Shown here: positions 13,803-59,819 of the stretch, piece by piece
Layout of the letters: every line of letters starts with the position of its first letter
Position numbering within the stretch: the first letter of the stretch is position 1
IMG/VR virus record: IMGVR_UViG_3300025648_000012
Location: 1 to 64,000 of that record
Length of the DNA stretch: 64,000 bases
Source of the DNA: a virus
Direction: 5' to 3' (one strand)
Position numbers and translations under genes: made by a program
Notes under the pieces: model-generated
Database searches by the model: none
The model's input: the letters and a program-made list of their open reading frames with translations, nothing else
Told to the model about the DNA's origin: nothing

Positions 13803-14122
13803 ACAAACACTCTAGCTTAGAAAATGGTCAATTAGTAGTTGCCCACTTAAAAAATGATAATTATCTTATTGGAAAATACGAAAGAAGCTCTATGACAATG
13901 GGAGTATGGGAACACTCAATTACTACTCCACGGCAAGTAGTTCTTCGGGAAACACCAGCAGGAATATCATTTGGATTAGCTCCATTTGGTTCCTGCTTTG
14001 GAATGATGCCAGAACTTCGTGTAGCTATTATTAACAGCGAAGATATATTTTCTCTTAGAAAGGCTCCTTCTAAACTCGAGGAAGTGTACTTAAAATCAAC
14101 TACAGGATTAGTTTTGCCTTAA
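13799..14122 (+). CDS. Small beta-rich protein, possibly Sm/Hfq-like
   Basis: 107 residues, ATG overlapping the upstream stop. The order of strands, NGQLVVAHLKNDNYLIGKYE, then a basic PRQVVLRE segment and VAIINSEDIFSL, resembles an Sm fold as in Hfq, ending in an acidic helix. The likeness is only by pattern. The stop is inside the 16-nt repeat array. Confidence 0.5.
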   Translation: MNKHSSLENGQLVVAHLKNDNYLIGKYERSSMTMGVWEHSITTPRQVVLRETPAGISFGLAPFGSCFGMMPELRVAIINSEDIFSLRKAPSKLEEVYLKSTTGLVLP

Positions 14123-14198
14123 CGAGTAACAACCTTAACGAGTAACAACCTTAACGAGTAACAACCTTAACGAGTAACAACCTTAACGAGTAACAACC
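14119..14198. repeat. 16-nt tandem repeat array between two genes
   Basis: Five exact copies of TTAACGAGTAACAACC fill the whole gap between the stop of the Sm-like gene (first copy) and the ATG at 14199. No purine-rich ribosome site other than the repeated AACGAG is present. Confidence 0.95.
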
Positions 14199-49426: not shown

Positions 49427-49468
49427 AAGTAAAAGACTACAAGTAAAAGACTACAAGTAAAAGACTAC
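49427..49468. repeat. 14-nt tandem repeat (3 copies)
   Basis: Three copies of AAGTAAAAGACTAC in the leader between a CTGTAAATA box and ATG 49494. Confidence 0.95.
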
Positions 49469-49493
49469 AAGGATAAAACAAAGGAGATACTCC

Positions 49494-49799: not shown

Positions 49800-50739
49800 A
49801 GCAGTTGGAATAGGTGATTTGCACTTAACTGGCGTTAAAGGAACTGTGCTAGTTGGTGGATTGTCTGAATATATACCTGACCACGATGCAATGGTAATGC
49901 GGCAGGTGCGTCGAGTACTCAAGTGGGCAGTAAAACAAGATATTTGTACTGTGTTTCTTTACGGAGACATTGGATGTTTTCCTTTGCTCTCTTATTCTGC
50001 ACAGTTAGAGTTACTGCGAGTGTTTAGGGATTTTCCTAACATGCACTTTCACACTATATTGGGTAACCACGATAAGGTAGCAGAAGATTCTTCACTCGGA
50101 CATTCTCTTTTAATACTACAGGAAGTGGTTGAAAACTTAACTGTGTATGAAAACCCAACAACTGTTAAACTTGAAGGTACCACCGTTAACTTTTTACCCT
50201 GGCCGTTTACCGAGTTTAAAGACTGCCTTAATGTATGCCACGTATCTGTAAATGGTGCTGTAGGGGATACAGGACACAAAGAAAAAACTAAGGTGAGTAC
50301 AGACTTTGTAACTGTAGCGGGTCATTTGCACACTAATCAAGTAGTAGGTAACACTTATTACTCAGGAACGCTATACCAAGTGTCTTTTGGAGAAAAGCCA
50401 AAGAAATCCTTTCATTTAATTGAAGGTAAAACTGTAGTTTCTATTCCTTTTGTACCTGAGTACACTCTGCATACGCATACTGTAAATAGTGAAGAGGATT
50501 GGAAGACTAAGCCAAATGGTCCCAAGGATTTAGTTAAGGTTGTAGTATCTCCTGGAGTCAAGGTGAATACGGATGCTAACTTTGTTAGGTTTGCGGCACA
50601 GCCACCCCAGTCAGGAGTTGAGTATGCGTATTCTTTAGATGACTTTCTTAAAAAATGGCTTAAAATGCAACAGGTTCCGAAAGCCTTAAAAGTAAAAGCA
50701 TGGAACCTTAGGCTACACAATAGTATGGAAGGAAACTAA
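49792..50739 (+). CDS. SbcD/Mre11-like DNA repair nuclease
   Basis: 315 residues. Metallophosphoesterase motifs GDLHLT (8-13), LYGDIG (about 57-62), LGNHDK (about 91-96) and VAGHLHTNQ (about 178), followed by YYSGTLYQVSFGEKP, typical of SbcD/T4 gp47. C-terminal DNA-binding cap region. In T4, gp47 pairs with the ATPase gp46; no SbcC-like ATPase is in this window. Confidence 0.85.
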   Translation: MLRAVGIGDLHLTGVKGTVLVGGLSEYIPDHDAMVMRQVRRVLKWAVKQDICTVFLYGDIGCFPLLSYSAQLELLRVFRDFPNMHFHTILGNHDKVAEDSSLGHSLLILQEVVENLTVYENPTTVKLEGTTVNFLPWPFTEFKDCLNVCHVSVNGAVGDTGHKEKTKVSTDFVTVAGHLHTNQVVGNTYYSGTLYQVSFGEKPKKSFHLIEGKTVVSIPFVPEYTLHTHTVNSEEDWKTKPNGPKDLVKVVVSPGVKVNTDANFVRFAAQPPQSGVEYAYSLDDFLKKWLKMQQVPKALKVKAWNLRLHNSMEGN

Positions 50740-50740
50740 A

Positions 50741-50995
50741 GTGCAAACTAAAGTGCAAACTAAAGTGCAAACTAAAGTGCAAACTACAATCTGTGAGGCA
50801 GTACCACATTCTTTTAGAGTATGCCCCTTAGCACCAAATCGTTGCTTGTGGCAACATAGAATTACTAATGAGTGCCAACATTTACCAGTTGAAACTGCAA
50901 ACGAATACGCTGAGTTAGTTGGCCTACCTTATTTATCGGGAGAGCAATATGAACAGCTAAAACAAAACTTAAGAACAGCATTGGAAGAAAGGTAA
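50741..50995 (+). CDS. Small protein with a 12-nt repeat-encoded N-terminus
   Basis: 84 residues from GTG 50741 (AAGGAAACTAAA before it). The first 16 residues are four copies of VQTK, encoded by in-frame 12-nt repeats (AAAGTGCAAACT). The rest is a Cys/His-containing segment (VCPLAPNRCLWQH; NECQHLP) that could bind zinc, then an acidic helix. Confidence 0.6.
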   Translation: MQTKVQTKVQTKVQTTICEAVPHSFRVCPLAPNRCLWQHRITNECQHLPVETANEYAELVGLPYLSGEQYEQLKQNLRTALEER

Positions 50996-51926: not shown

Positions 51927-52022
51927 ACAAAGTTGTAAAAATCTTCATAGAAAATAAATTTGACAGCTTTTCAAAAGCTATTTATAATATAATTGTGGTA
52001 GAATAGAACCACGATTTTAACT
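51927..52022 (+). promoter_or_regulatory. Strong sigma70-type promoter with conserved leader (copy 1)
   Basis: TTGACA at 51960-51965 and TATAAT at 51983-51988, both perfect, 17-nt spacer. The ~95-nt block, from AAGTTGTAAAAATCTTCATAG through the leader hairpin GTGGT...ACCAC (51995-52012), is almost identical to the block at 57343-57437; only the spacer differs. Host RNA polymerase should use it early. Confidence 0.9.
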
Positions 52023-54984: not shown

Positions 54985-55902
54985 ATGAATACTAAATATG
55001 AGTTTGTAAAAATGAATACTAAGTATGAATTTGTGGAGGGGGATATAGTAGAAGTAAATGGGGTAACCCTTCACCGCATTAGAGCCTTAAAGGACATAGG
55101 AAGAAGGGAATATAAGGTAGTCAAAACAGGAGACCTAGGTGGTTACATTGAGTCAGAATCTAACCTGTCTACTGTTGATGATTGTTGGGTATTTGACAAT
55201 GCTTATGTATATGACAATGCTCAGGTATTTGGTAATGCTTGGGTACTAGATAACGCTCAGGTATTTGGTAATGCTAAGGTATGTGGTAATGCTAAGGTAT
55301 TCAGTAATGCTAAGGTATCTGGTAATGCTAAGGTATCTAATTATGCTTGGGTATATGGTGATTCTGAGGTATGTGGGGAAGCTGAGGTATATGGCAAGGC
55401 TCGAGTATTTGATACTGCTCAAGTATATGGAGATGCTCAGATATTCGGTATTGCACTTGTATTCGGTATTGCACTTGTATACGGTAGTGCGGAAGTATGT
55501 GATAAAGCAGTAGTATGTGGCGATGCAAAGATTTATGGAAACCAAAAAGTATGTGGAAGTATAAAGGAGCTTATAAATAATGTAGATGAAGAAAAAGATA
55601 AAACCGTAACTACTCGTGGAAAGTATGTAGTAGGCAGAGTAAAAGGCGATATCTTTGTTTCTGCGGTTATATTGCAAGAAACCGCAACTCATAGCTCTAT
55701 ACTTCCAATTTTTGTAGAAGGTTCAGTAAAGTCAGCTGGAATGTTTAGCTTAGACTTTGAATGTGGAGTCCCAAAGGTCAGAGTTGAAGGTGAATCTACG
55801 AGCCTTAAACTTAAACCTAGTCATTTAGACTCCATGTATATTCTTACTACTTTGGGACTTTATGACCCCTCTCTTAATAACAAAGGAGACACAAATGACT
55901 GA
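54985..55902 (+). CDS. Left-handed beta-helix (hexapeptide-repeat) protein A
   Basis: 305 residues. ATG 54985 follows TTAAGGAGGTAAA. The first nine codons are tandemly duplicated (MNTKYEFVK / MNTKYEFVE), so the original start may be 55012. After a small domain (VNGVTLHRIRALKDIG; GDLGGYIESESNLST), about 20 hexapeptide turns of the type (G)-N-A-x-V-(x) build a left-handed beta helix (about 70-195), then a C-terminal beta domain. A close paralogue is at 58278. Such proteins may be fibre-like, transferase-like or DNA-mimicking; no catalytic motif is visible. Confidence 0.75.
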   Translation: MNTKYEFVKMNTKYEFVEGDIVEVNGVTLHRIRALKDIGRREYKVVKTGDLGGYIESESNLSTVDDCWVFDNAYVYDNAQVFGNAWVLDNAQVFGNAKVCGNAKVFSNAKVSGNAKVSNYAWVYGDSEVCGEAEVYGKARVFDTAQVYGDAQIFGIALVFGIALVYGSAEVCDKAVVCGDAKIYGNQKVCGSIKELINNVDEEKDKTVTTRGKYVVGRVKGDIFVSAVILQETATHSSILPIFVEGSVKSAGMFSLDFECGVPKVRVEGESTSLKLKPSHLDSMYILTTLGLYDPSLNNKGDTND

Positions 55903-56109: not shown

Positions 56110-56964
56110 ATGTCACATATTAAAACTCTAGTTCGGGGTGCGTACGATATTCAAAAGTTGCGTATTCAAATGGGAAACCGCATTGTTCAAAACTTCAAAT
56201 CTAAATTGGGGTATATCTCAGGCAAAACTGAAGATAAAATGGAAAAAGAAGAGCAAAAAATTCTCATAACTTTGCGTCAACAATATAAAAAGATTACTGA
56301 CGGAGTAAAGAACTTTCCTAGACCTTCTACTTTCAAAGGAAATGAAATAATTTCTGACTATACGGAATTGTGTCTAATTCATCAGTATTGTGAATTGGAA
56401 AATTCAGAAAGCCAGCATTTTCGTAATATGGAGAAAGTACTTGAAAGCTACCCCATTTATAAAGAGTTTCTTAGTAAAGTTAGGGGGTGCGGGCCAGCAA
56501 TGTCAGGAGTAATAATTTCTGAAATTGATATTTCAAAGTGCAAATATGCTTCAAGTTTGTGGATGTATTCTGGGCTGGATGTAGCATCAGATGGTGCTGG
56601 AAGAAGTAAGAAAAAAGAGCATCTAGTTGAATTTAGTTACATTGATAGAGAAGGGAAGGAGCAGACAAAACTAGGCATCACCTTTAACCCTTTTCTTAAG
56701 ACTAAGCTAGTGGGTGTTTTGGGGCCATCTTTTCTTCGTTCAGGAAACGAAAAATACACAGAATGTTACTATAACTATAAAAATAGGCTTGAAAACCATC
56801 CACTGCATAAAGAAAAGACCAAACTGCATAGGCATAATATGGCTATTAGATACATGGTTAAACGCTTTTTGGTTGATCTTTATTACGACTGGAGAACATT
56901 GGAAGGTCTTCCTGTGGAAAAAGAATACAGCGAAGGTAAACTTGGTATGAAACACGCAGCTTAA
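56110..56964 (+). CDS. IS110/Transposase_20-like protein, phage type
   Basis: 284 residues. The segment FLSKVRGCGPAMSGVIISEI with KCKYASSLWMYSGLDV matches the helix-hairpin-helix C-terminal domain of IS110-family transposases (Transposase_20), followed by GRSKKKEHLVE and a conserved tail HRHNMAIRYMVKRFLVDLYY. The N-terminal DEDD RuvC-like domain of IS110 is not evident; instead there is a 100-residue helical region. Known as transposase-annotated proteins in phages, possibly domesticated DNA-binding factors. No terminal repeats flank it. ATG after AAAGGAGAAATAAA. Confidence 0.7.
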   Translation: MSHIKTLVRGAYDIQKLRIQMGNRIVQNFKSKLGYISGKTEDKMEKEEQKILITLRQQYKKITDGVKNFPRPSTFKGNEIISDYTELCLIHQYCELENSESQHFRNMEKVLESYPIYKEFLSKVRGCGPAMSGVIISEIDISKCKYASSLWMYSGLDVASDGAGRSKKKEHLVEFSYIDREGKEQTKLGITFNPFLKTKLVGVLGPSFLRSGNEKYTECYYNYKNRLENHPLHKEKTKLHRHNMAIRYMVKRFLVDLYYDWRTLEGLPVEKEYSEGKLGMKHAA

Positions 56965-57001
56965 TTTTAACCACAACTATGAAAGAAACCCAGTGATGTT
57001 A

Positions 57002-57335
57002 AGTGAATCAAAAATAAAACTAACTATGTTAGAGTCAAAATATGTAAAATTACCAAAGGAAACAAGCGAATCAATAAGTAAAAGTAACCCAGAAATACGA
57101 AGTGGGTCACAACTACAAGTAAACCAAGCTTTAAGAGAGAGTCGGATGAACTGAGACCCCCATAGAAGACGTAGCGACTCAAAGTTAACCAAGTAGTCGA
57201 AGTAAACCAAAGGAAATAAGTGAATCATCCGGTTTAAGTAAACCGAAATAAAGAAGTGAATCATAGGATCTAAGTAAACCAGTAAGTCTGAGCGAGCCAA
57301 ATAACGAGAGTAACCCAATACCTCAAAGTGCCAGG
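57002..57335. repeat. 18-nt periodic array with alternating conserved 9-mers
   Basis: A conserved 9-mer AGTRAAYCA recurs every 18 nt with a variable 9-mer between. Clear units start at 57002 (AGTGAATCA), 57065, 57083, 57101, 57118, 57201, 57219, 57237, 57255, 57273, 57291 and 57309. Two forms, AGTAAACCA and AGTGAATCA, alternate, giving a 36-nt superperiod. One spacer (TCCGGTTTA) can pair with the next unit (AGTAAACCG). Plus-strand codons would give S-(K/E/N)-(P/S)-x-x-x hexapeptides but contain stops at 57249 and 57264 and frame changes. The region lies between the IS110-like gene and the early promoter. Nature unknown. Confidence 0.8.
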
Positions 57336-57342
57336 TAAACTA

Positions 57343-57437
57343 CAAAGTTGTAAAAATCTTCATAGAAAATAAATTTGACACCCTACTCAAAGTTCATTAT
57401 AATATAATTGTGGTAGAATAGAACCACGATTTTAACT
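57343..57437 (+). promoter_or_regulatory. Strong sigma70-type promoter with conserved leader (copy 2)
   Basis: TTGACA at 57375-57380 and TATAAT at 57398-57403, 17-nt spacer, with leader hairpin GTGGT (57410-57414)/ACCAC (57423-57427). Flanks are almost identical to the block at 51927-52022, an intragenomic duplication of a promoter module. Confidence 0.9.
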
Positions 57438-57468: not shown

Positions 57469-57921
57469 ATGAATACTAAATTATTTCTAACAGTAGCAGC
57501 TGGGGCAATAATGGTTACAAGTGAACCAGTTATGGCACATAAAAATACTGGAATGATAGTGGTTACTGCACAAGTGTTGCCGACTTGTATTTTAGATACA
57601 AGTGCTGCTCCACCGGTACTTTATGATTCCTTAAAAAGAAATTCAGGGTCTGGTTCTGACATTTCCGTAGAGTACGAGTTTACACTGCAATGCACCCGAG
57701 GTTCACCACTGACAAAAGTTTCAGTAGTATCCATACCTGAATCCGGAGTAACAGTAACAGTAGCTGGAGGATCATGCCATTCTCCACATGAACTAATCTA
57801 CTCTGACTTTTCAGGCCCTATAAAGGATTACATTTGTGTTACTTTTCCAAAAGGACAAGCACTCCAGGTTGGTACGTATGGAACTTCTATTTCTTTGAGT
57901 TTAAGCACCTCTGGGCTCTAA
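57469..57921 (+). CDS. Secreted SCPU/pilin-like early protein
   Basis: 150 residues, first gene after the perfect early promoter, ATG after AAGGAGACTTAAA. Sec signal peptide (about 1-24, cleavage near VMAHK). The mature part VVTAQVLPTCILDTSAAPPV, with YEFTLQCTRGSPLTKVSV and two further cysteines, resembles the spore coat protein U / fimbrial Ig-like fold with disulfides. A periplasmic or surface protein made early may block superinfection or modify the envelope (inference). Confidence 0.6.
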   Translation: MNTKLFLTVAAGAIMVTSEPVMAHKNTGMIVVTAQVLPTCILDTSAAPPVLYDSLKRNSGSGSDISVEYEFTLQCTRGSPLTKVSVVSIPESGVTVTVAGGSCHSPHELIYSDFSGPIKDYICVTFPKGQALQVGTYGTSISLSLSTSGL

Positions 57922-58277: not shown

Positions 58278-58985
58278 ATGAATACTAAGTACGAATTTGT
58301 GGAAGGTGATACAATAGAAGTATATGGAGTAACCCTTCACCGCATTAGAGCATTGAGGGATATAGGCGATTTAGTAAAAGTTGGAGACTTAGGTGGGTAC
58401 GTTGAGTCAGAATCTAACCTGTCTACTATGGATGGTTCTTGGGTACTCGACAATGCTAAGGTATATGATAATGCTAAGGTATATGGTAATGCTAAGGTAT
58501 GTGGGGAAGCTGAGGTATATGGTAATGCTAAGGTATATGGTAATGCTTGGGTATCTGGTAATGCTAAGGTATCTGGTGATGCTAAGGTATCTGGTGATGC
58601 TTGGGTATCTGACAATGCTTGGGTATATGGTAATGCTAAGGTATATGGTAATGCTAAGGTATATGGTAATGCTTGGGTATCTGGTAATGCTAAGGTATAT
58701 GGTGATTCTGAGGTATCTGGTGATGCTTGGGTATATGGTAATGCTAAGGTATATGGTAATGCTTGGGTATTTGGTGATGCTCAAGTATTTGGTGATGCTA
58801 AGGTATTTGGTGATGCTAAGGTATTTGGTGATTCTGAGGTACGTGGGAATGCTGAGGTATGTGGTACAGCTAAGATGGATGACGGGATGGTATTTAGCAA
58901 TATTGTGGTAAGCGAAGGCCCAAATATTCATAAAGATAAACAAGAAAAACCTCTAAACAACAACACAACCTCAAAAGGAAACTAA
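58278..58985 (+). CDS. Left-handed beta-helix protein B
   Basis: 235 residues. Same N-terminus as protein A (MNTKYEFVEGDTIEVYGVTL; GDLGGYVESESNLST) followed by about 24 hexapeptides (GNAKVY, GDAWVS and so on) encoded by near-identical 18-nt units (58445-58870). The DNA identity between units shows recent expansion or gene conversion. No C-terminal beta domain as in protein A. ATG after TTAAGGAGAATTAAA. Confidence 0.75.
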   Translation: MNTKYEFVEGDTIEVYGVTLHRIRALRDIGDLVKVGDLGGYVESESNLSTMDGSWVLDNAKVYDNAKVYGNAKVCGEAEVYGNAKVYGNAWVSGNAKVSGDAKVSGDAWVSDNAWVYGNAKVYGNAKVYGNAWVSGNAKVYGDSEVSGDAWVYGNAKVYGNAWVFGDAQVFGDAKVFGDAKVFGDSEVRGNAEVCGTAKMDDGMVFSNIVVSEGPNIHKDKQEKPLNNNTTSKGN

Positions 58986-59213: not shown

Positions 59214-59819
59214 ATGAGAACTTCTATTATTCCTTATGAATCTCATAAAGATTTCTTACTACGAATACTTATTCCTCCTTTGCGTTGCAAAATGAGAGAA
59301 AAACTAAAACAACTTAGAGAATGGCAGCAACTTTGCCATTCTCTAGCAGATAGGGCCTTTTCTGAGAATGAAAAACTTGTATCTGAGCTTTTTCAAAAAA
59401 GAAGAACAACTAAGAGCAAAACTTTAGGAGTTCCTCAGGACGAGCTTCTCTCCTCCTCCATACACTATACTCCAGAAGAGGAATATAGGTTAAAAAAGTT
59501 ATGGAAACAGGCAGCAAACATCTGCCATCCTGATAAAGGAGGAATAGTAGAAGATTTTTTGGACTGTAAGGCGGCATTTGAGGCTAAAGACCATGAGTTT
59601 TTATTTTCTTTTGTGCAGTCAGAGAAAACTTTGGAAGGAAAGTACAAGTTTTATGGTCTCCGTTTTTTAGATTGCCATAGACAGGAAGTATTGTTTAGAC
59701 AGTCTATTTTCTTCAAAATAGCCTATGAAGTTCAAAAGGGAAACTTAAAAGAGGCTAAACTACTAGCAGAACAACACTTAAAGGAGGAGTTAATTGAATT
59801 ATCTAAGTTTGCAGTATAG
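59214..59819 (+). CDS. J-domain (DnaJ-like) protein
   Basis: 201 residues. EEEYRLKKLWKQAANICHPD-KGG (HPD at about 105-107) is the J-domain helix II/HPD loop, with KAAFEAKDHEF as helix III. The N-terminal 80 residues and the C-terminal helical region are unassigned. J proteins stimulate Hsp70 (DnaK); a phage version could redirect host DnaK to phage replication or assembly. Confidence 0.75.
   Translation: MRTSIIPYESHKDFLLRILIPPLRCKMREKLKQLREWQQLCHSLADRAFSENEKLVSELFQKRRTTKSKTLGVPQDELLSSSIHYTPEEEYRLKKLWKQAANICHPDKGGIVEDFLDCKAAFEAKDHEFLFSFVQSEKTLEGKYKFYGLRFLDCHRQEVLFRQSIFFKIAYEVQKGNLKEAKLLAEQHLKEELIELSKFAV

What the first reader, a model, noticed from the sequence alone, without database searches (positions are those of the whole stretch)
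57002..57335. Eighteen-nucleotide periodic array with alternating conserved 9-mers and variable 9-mers
AGTAAACCA and AGTGAATCA alternate every 18 nt with unique 9-nt spacers for about 330 nt. The array is not CRISPR, not simple satellite DNA, and is not a clean reading frame on the plus strand (stops and two 1-nt frame changes). It sits between an IS110-like gene and a duplicated early promoter. It could be a decayed hexapeptide-repeat gene, a structured RNA or a protein-binding array.
Basis: seen in the sequence. Interest (0 to 1): 0.72.

Follow-up and report, generated by a model that had tools for sequence, protein, structure and literature searches.

The report
Phage TIGR guide-RNA array with TasA
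The odd 18-letter pattern is a cassette of small guide RNAs next to its partner protein in a large phage, a new example of the TIGR-Tas systems described in 2025; comparing about a thousand related guides suggests that they aim at protein-coding genes of other DNA.

Summary
The array runs 56969-57330 (+), starting 4 nt after the "IS110-like" gene. That gene (56110-56964) encodes a Tas protein: NCBIfam TIGR_Tas_endo 115.8 bits (cut-off 100), PDB hits to TasR and TasH, and an AlphaFold model whose 11 significant Foldseek hits are all TasR/TasH. It is all-helical up to residue 172, with no nuclease domain, so it is TasA. The array is a dual-repeat TIGR array: edge AGTGAATCA, 9-nt spacer A, loop AGTAAACCA, 9-nt spacer B, in 36-nt units with half edges at both ends, as published for this family. 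It is not a decayed hexapeptide gene. About 110 Tas loci were fetched and nearly all carry such arrays; their edge repeats covary within each 36-nt guide RNA. Window system: a new member of a known kind, about 8 usable guides, partly irregular. New comparative result: among about 960 non-redundant natural units, spacers A and B keep a codon register on opposite strands with a 2-bp gap (z about 3; no signal between neighbouring units), and near-duplicate units differ in the same register (P 0.0003). Natural targets are therefore probably coding DNA, bound as a 20-bp split site. No target was identified.

The parts
56110..56964 (+). tasA: 284-aa solo Nop-domain TIGR-associated protein
   Evidence: NCBIfam NF052498 E 2.7e-33; PDB TasR 9mty 1.4e-11, TasH 21kl 5.9e-7; AF2 model pLDDT 85, Foldseek hits with E<=0.001 all TasR/TasH
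56969..57330 (+). TIGR dual-repeat array (whole)
   Evidence: 36-nt period, alternating edge/loop repeats; same array beside tas in relatives
56969..56973 (+). 5' half edge repeat AACCA (edge positions 5-9), start of array
   Evidence: [quoted passage not shown]
57002..57010 (+). edge repeat AGTGAATCA; further edges at 57029, 57065, 57101, 57136, 57173, 57219, 57255, 57291
   Evidence: covariation at positions 2-7 and 3-6
57201..57209 (+). loop repeat AGTAAACCA; further loops at 56984, 57047, 57083, 57118, 57154, 57237, 57273, 57309
57033..57068 (+). predicted 36-nt tigRNA (spacers AAATATGTA / AAGGAAACA)
   Evidence: regular unit with both closing pairs
57069..57104 (+). predicted 36-nt tigRNA (spacers ATAAGTAAA / GAAATACGA)
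   Evidence: regular unit with both closing pairs
57223..57258 (+). predicted 36-nt tigRNA (spacers TCCGGTTTA / AAATAAAGA)
   Evidence: regular unit with both closing pairs
57259..57294 (+). predicted 36-nt tigRNA (spacers TAGGATCTA / GTAAGTCTG)
   Evidence: regular unit, one of two closing pairs
57295..57330 (+). predicted last tigRNA (spacers AATAACGAG / ATACCTCAA) ending in half edge AGTG
57011..57028 (+). irregular stretch, loop repeat not recognisable, 9 nt short
57182..57200 (+). irregular stretch with extra loop-like AGTTAACCA, probably a deletion or recombination scar
51960..51988 (+). perfect sigma-70-type promoter (TTGACA-17-TATAAT) at the head of the gene run that ends in tasA and the array
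   Evidence: 12 of 12 matches; its upstream 39 bp are duplicated at 57342-57380

Best explanation
This is a phage-borne TIGR-TasA system. The gene run from the promoter at 51960 probably carries tasA and, 4 nt after its stop codon, the array (inferred). The transcript would be cut within each edge repeat into 36-nt tigRNAs of the form [edge 5-9]-spacer A-loop-spacer B-[edge 1-4], whose ends close through two base pairs (pairing supported here by covariation; cutting shown elsewhere for other TIGR loci, inferred here). A TasA dimer would bind each tigRNA through its two Nop domains, one on the edge and one on the loop, and open a DNA site where spacer A pairs with one strand and spacer B with the other. 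Statistical evidence here says that natural sites in this clade lie in protein-coding DNA, with 2 bp between the two half-sites (18 read bases in 20 bp). TasA has no nuclease, so the likeliest effect is RNA-guided binding and bending that blocks a gene or replication of a rival element (inferred, not shown).
For: Protein: NF052498 above its curated cut-off; PDB sequence hits to TasR and TasH; all 11 Foldseek hits with E<=0.001 are TasR/TasH, next IS110 ISCro4 at 0.08; no strand before residue 173, so no RuvC or HNH fold. Array: two alternating 9-nt repeats, 9-nt spacers, 36-nt unit, half edges at both ends, as in PMC12045711. The same parser finds the published SpTIGR array of Salicola phage CGphi29 (edge AGCGAGCCA, loop AGACAACCA) and arrays beside 30 of 31 first-round relatives and most of 80 second-round ones. 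RNA: edge pairs 2-7 and 3-6 are kept in all 82 array consensuses with three pair types each; compensation is within a tigRNA (46 of 69 rescued) and not within a repeat (14 of 69); 98.8% paired, 24 double changes, 0/500 shuffles. Targets: codon-register test, only opposite-strand gap 2 enriched, z 2.95-3.31 with GC-matched models, nothing for neighbouring units; near-duplicate units, i+j = 0 mod 3, P 0.0003.
Against: No expression data. No target found in the 142.7-kb record, in fetched loci, or as a multi-family signal in viral contigs. Two of about ten units in the window array are irregular, so it may be partly decayed. No G+C-rich terminator follows the last half edge. The register test is pooled over the clade: z was 1.3-1.6 with an independent codon model not matched for GC, and gap 2 cannot be told from -1 or 5 by register alone (published tolerance of 0-2 bp for TasR favours 2).
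Confidence: 0.95

Rival explanations
1. A decayed hexapeptide-repeat (beta-solenoid) gene; true genes of that kind with an 18-nt period lie on both sides.
For: 54985-55902 and 58278-58985 are YdcK-type solenoid genes with 18-nt coding repeats; one plus frame is open for 53 codons.
Against: Array repeats do not resemble the solenoid repeats. Stops occur in every frame. Relatives keep the repeats and not a frame, with new spacers in each. Conservation follows RNA pairing across units.
Confidence: 0.01
2. An IS110-family transposase with its bridge RNA region.
For: Weak Pfam Transposase_20 match, 15.2 bits (cut-off 21.3); PHROG 4285 is labelled transposase.
Against: No DEDD domain: the protein is 284 aa and all-helical up to residue 172. 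NF033542 transpos_IS110 12.7 bits against a cut-off of 140, while NF052498 passes. IS110 bridge RNAs are single, not 36-nt arrays (PMC12045711).
Confidence: 0.01
3. A TIGR array used on the phage's own genome (gene regulation or genome handling) instead of against rival DNA.
For: TasA lacks a nuclease, so self-binding would not be lethal; coding-register targets could be own genes.
Against: No own-genome site above the shuffled level, 18 hits with up to 3 mismatches against 13-23 in nulls. The record may be incomplete, and TasA may tolerate more mismatches.
Confidence: 0.15
4. A dying TIGR system: the array is no longer maintained and its guides are relics.
For: Irregular units at 57011-57028 and 57182-57200; 8- and 10-nt spacers; several edges off consensus.
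Against: tasA is intact and keeps the residues invariant in 17 relatives. Closing pairs are kept in most units even where single edges deviate. Relatives also have some off-length spacers.
Confidence: 0.2

Closest known systems
TIGR-TasH of Salicola phage CGphi29 (SpTIGR, PMC12045711)
   Same: Repeats almost identical in plan (AGCGAGCCA/AGACAACCA against AGTGAATCA/AGTAAACCA), 36-nt unit, array directly after tas, Nop core.
   Different: TasH has an N-terminal HNH nuclease; the window protein has none. 28% identity over 55% of the query.
TIGR-TasA, e.g. Flavonifractor plautii FpTIGR (PMC12045711)
   Same: Solo Nop protein with a dual-repeat array; tigRNAs of 36 nt shown there.
   Different: Sequence not compared here; host and phage context differ.
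TaTasR (PDB 9mty)
   Same: Nop core and dual-repeat array; sequence E 1.4e-11, Foldseek E 1.6e-7.
   Different: TasR has an active RuvC domain and UG/CCA boxes; here the repeats begin AG and end CCA/TCA.
IS110 transposases with bridge RNA
   Same: Related Nop-like RNA-binding domain (Foldseek E 0.08 to ISCro4).
   Different: No DEDD catalytic domain, no mobile-element ends, array instead of one bridge RNA.

Membership tests
TIGR-Tas (dual-repeat type) | Nop-domain Tas protein | tested here: met
   NF052498 above cut-off; PDB and Foldseek hits
TIGR-Tas (dual-repeat type) | adjacent array of two alternating 8-12-nt repeats with 9-nt spacers | tested here: met
TIGR-Tas (dual-repeat type) | array begins and ends with truncated edge repeats | tested here: met
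   AACCA at 56969-56973 and AGTG at 57327-57330
TIGR-Tas (dual-repeat type) | rho-independent terminator after the last edge (described as typical, not as required) | tested here: not met
   no terminator-like site between the last edge and the promoter at 57375; one hairpin at 57406-57431
TIGR-Tas (dual-repeat type) | edge-repeat pairs supported by covariation | tested here: met
TIGR-Tas (dual-repeat type) | processing into 36-nt tigRNAs bound by Tas | not testable with these tools
   needs small-RNA sequencing; compensation inside 36-nt units supports it
TIGR-Tas (dual-repeat type) | tandem spacers pair with opposite DNA strands | tested here: inconclusive
   register statistics over the clade support it; not shown for this array
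TasA subtype | no nuclease domain fused to Nop | tested here: met
   284 aa, no strand before residue 173 in the model
IS110 transposase | DEDD RuvC-like catalytic domain and curated family score | tested here: not met
   12.7 bits against a cut-off of 140; model has no N-terminal RuvC fold
CRISPR array | single repeat of about 25-36 nt with similar-length spacers | tested here: not met
   two 9-nt repeats, 9-nt spacers

The most novel reading that the evidence does not exclude
Phage TIGR-TasA arrays are libraries of guides against protein-coding genes of other DNA (rival phages or host). Each guide reads a 20-bp split site (9 bases on one strand, a 2-bp gap, 9 bases on the other), and arrays carry sets of near-duplicate guides that follow synonymous variants of the same target gene, as in an arms race.
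Probability: 0.45. Interest if true: 0.85.

Novelty: new member of a known kind. Interest (0 to 1): 0.62.

Why it matters
TIGR-Tas systems were described in 2025, and their authors state that natural targets, spacer origin and the role of the nuclease-free TasA are unknown. This window adds a phage TasA locus, and the comparison of about 110 related loci gives two sequence-only results. First, guide ends co-evolve within single 36-nt units, which supports the processed tigRNA and its closing pairs for this clade. Second, the two spacers of natural guides keep a codon register on opposite strands with a 2-bp gap, which points to coding DNA as the natural target and gives a concrete search rule (B-NN-rc(A)) for finding targets.

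Tried and rejected
Decayed coding repeat, IS110 bridge RNA and CRISPR were considered and rejected (see rivals). Target searches: own 142.7-kb record at gaps 0-2, related loci and an enlarged 1.66-Mb pool at gaps -1 to 8 gave nothing above shuffled pairings, apart from hits brought in by the L092 scan itself. Exact scans of viral contigs with two window units gave 0 hits and one locus in three copies, which is chance level. A unit of L092 gave 83 hits at gaps 0-4 in mixed genes; the gap-4 peak is mostly one common small gene, so it was dropped. A wobble-tolerant pattern from the L015 guide pair gave 21 contigs, 10 of them the same in-frame codons (EGVTGKG) of a marine T4-like phage primase. 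The number of distinct loci hit is about the chance expectation (own estimate), and other guides do not match those contigs, so this is only a lead. A jumbo-phage guide gave 4 scattered hits. A same-strand reading of the spacer pair showed no signal. A first 3-nt periodicity test on fewer arrays was not significant (P 0.13), nor was the strictest cluster cut-off (P 0.06-0.13).

Full report
What is there. The window is the first 64 kb of a 142,721-base IMG/VR virus record. The flagged stretch has autocorrelation peaks at 18, 36 and 54 nt. A parser that chains alternating 9-mers finds nine edge repeats (AGTGAATCA type), nine loop repeats (AGTAAACCA type; one more loop-like 9-mer lies in an irregular stretch) and, at the ends, half an edge each: AACCA at 56969-56973 and AGTG at 57327-57330. 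Spacers are 9 nt with few exceptions. Two stretches are irregular (57011-57028 and 57182-57200). The region has stops in all three plus frames.

The neighbour gene. ORF 56110-56964 ends 4 nt before the array. It passes the NCBIfam model TIGR_Tas_endo (115.8 bits, cut-off 100) and fails the IS110 model (12.7, cut-off 140). By sequence its best PDB matches are TasR 9mty (1.4e-11) and TasH 21kl (5.9e-7). An AlphaFold2 model on 17 relatives (pLDDT 85, pTM 0.79) finds only TasR and TasH chains at E <= 0.001 in the PDB, then an IS110 transposase at 0.08. The model is all-helical up to residue 172, so it has no RuvC or HNH domain: it is TasA. The model name 'endonuclease' does not apply to this protein.

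Known system. [quoted passage not shown] All features testable here are met except a terminator. The same parser run on Salicola phage CGphi29, whose TasH system is experimentally described in that paper, returns edge AGCGAGCCA and loop AGACAACCA directly after tas.

Relatives. A viral-contig search gave 31 loci, 30 with arrays beside tas on the tas strand (scores 113-1076; shuffled 9-13). A profile search gave 80 loci, most of them new, nearly all with arrays; one of two genome-contig loci also has one. Close relatives (about 95-97% identical flanks) share units in different order with one or two changed bases, so arrays turn over faster than their surroundings. Jumbo-size contigs L022-L027 and L030 have roughly 400-430-aa Tas proteins with two loop insertions and arrays upstream. 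In L018, L020 and L021 the array starts inside the 3' end of tas.

RNA structure. In 82 array consensuses, edge position 2 pairs with 7 (A-U 44, G-C 22, G-U 16) and 3 with 6 (C-G 67, U-A 14, U-G 1); loop repeats do not pair at 3-6. When a base at position 3 breaks pairing, it is rescued in 46 of 69 cases by the preceding edge's 3' half (the partner within one tigRNA), but in 14 of 69 within the same repeat and 13 of 69 with the next edge; for position 2 the figures are 20, 2 and 5 of 44. On an ungapped alignment of 43 predicted tigRNAs the two closing pairs are 98.8% standard with 24 double changes, never reached in 500 shuffles; sliding by 1-3 columns lowers the covariation. The unit of selection is therefore the 36-nt RNA cut between edge positions 4 and 5, as published for other loci.

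Targets. 1062 distinct 9+9 units were collected. Units in related arrays that differ by up to 4 bases vary at sites 3 nt apart within a spacer more than expected (40 against 29.2, sd 3.8, P 0.006), and variable positions i in A and j in B satisfy i+j = 0 mod 3 (48 against 31.8, sd 4.0, P 0.0003 after correction over six classes), while j-i shows nothing. A stricter cut-off of 3 differences has too few sites (P 0.06-0.13). That relation is what a reading frame crossing both half-sites on opposite strands would give, with gap 2 in the arrangement A+rc(B). An independent test on about 960 non-redundant units used a codon-phase Markov model and shuffled B among units of one array. Only opposite-strand gap 2 is enriched: z 3.0, P 0.0006; with GC-matched models z 2.95 (own-loci ORFs), 3.22 (independent viral ORFs) and 3.31 (both); the other five classes stay below 0.2. 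Pairs of neighbouring spacers from different units (B of one, A of the next) give nothing. With an independent model not matched for GC the z is only 1.3-1.6, so the effect is modest per unit. Published tolerance of TasR for gaps of 0-2 bp, not more, favours gap 2 over 5.

What was not found. No own-genome target, and no target class in loci or viral contigs above chance. The marine T4-like primase matches of the L015 guide pair are a lead only.

Function. Shown: identity of protein and array, RNA closing pairs, register statistics. Inferred: transcription from the promoter at 51960, processing, TasA-tigRNA binding to split 20-bp coding sites. Speculative: blocking a rival's or the host's gene by binding and bending, as the authors of PMC12045711 suggest for TasA.

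Noticed in passing
54985-55902 and 58278-58985: Two paralogous YdcK-type beta-solenoid (hexapeptide) genes with true 18-nt coding repeats flank the array and share their first 60 residues; they are unrelated to the array despite the same period.
   Followed up: partly
1-125, 545-648, 854-926, 14117-14198, 49427-49471, 50733-50786: Short tandem arrays with perfect copies, each with a different unit (20, 17, 14, 16, 14 and 12 nt), spread along the phage genome.
   Followed up: no
51927-51988 and 57342-57403: Duplicated early-promoter region, 39 identical bp plus a perfect TTGACA-17-TATAAT, bracketing the gene run that holds tasA and the array.
   Followed up: partly
57469-57921: 150-aa ORF with a signal peptide and a pilin/coat-like look (VTAQVLPTCILD), no Pfam match; unusual in a phage.
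   Followed up: no
59214-59819: ORF with a J-domain-like HPDKGG motif.
   Followed up: no
L018, L020, L021 after tas: The TIGR array begins inside the 3' end of the tas reading frame, so repeats are both coding and guide sequence.
   Followed up: no
L006-L012, L028, L029, L033: Phages with about 95-97% identical flanks carry arrays with reordered units and spacers changed at one or two bases, a natural series for studying how TIGR arrays change.
   Followed up: partly
L207, L209, L212, L213, L219, L221, L222, L224, L226, L229: Marine T4-like phage primase gene carries, in frame, the wobble-degenerate split site of the L015 guide pair (EGVTGKG); candidate natural target, not above chance on present evidence.
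   Followed up: partly
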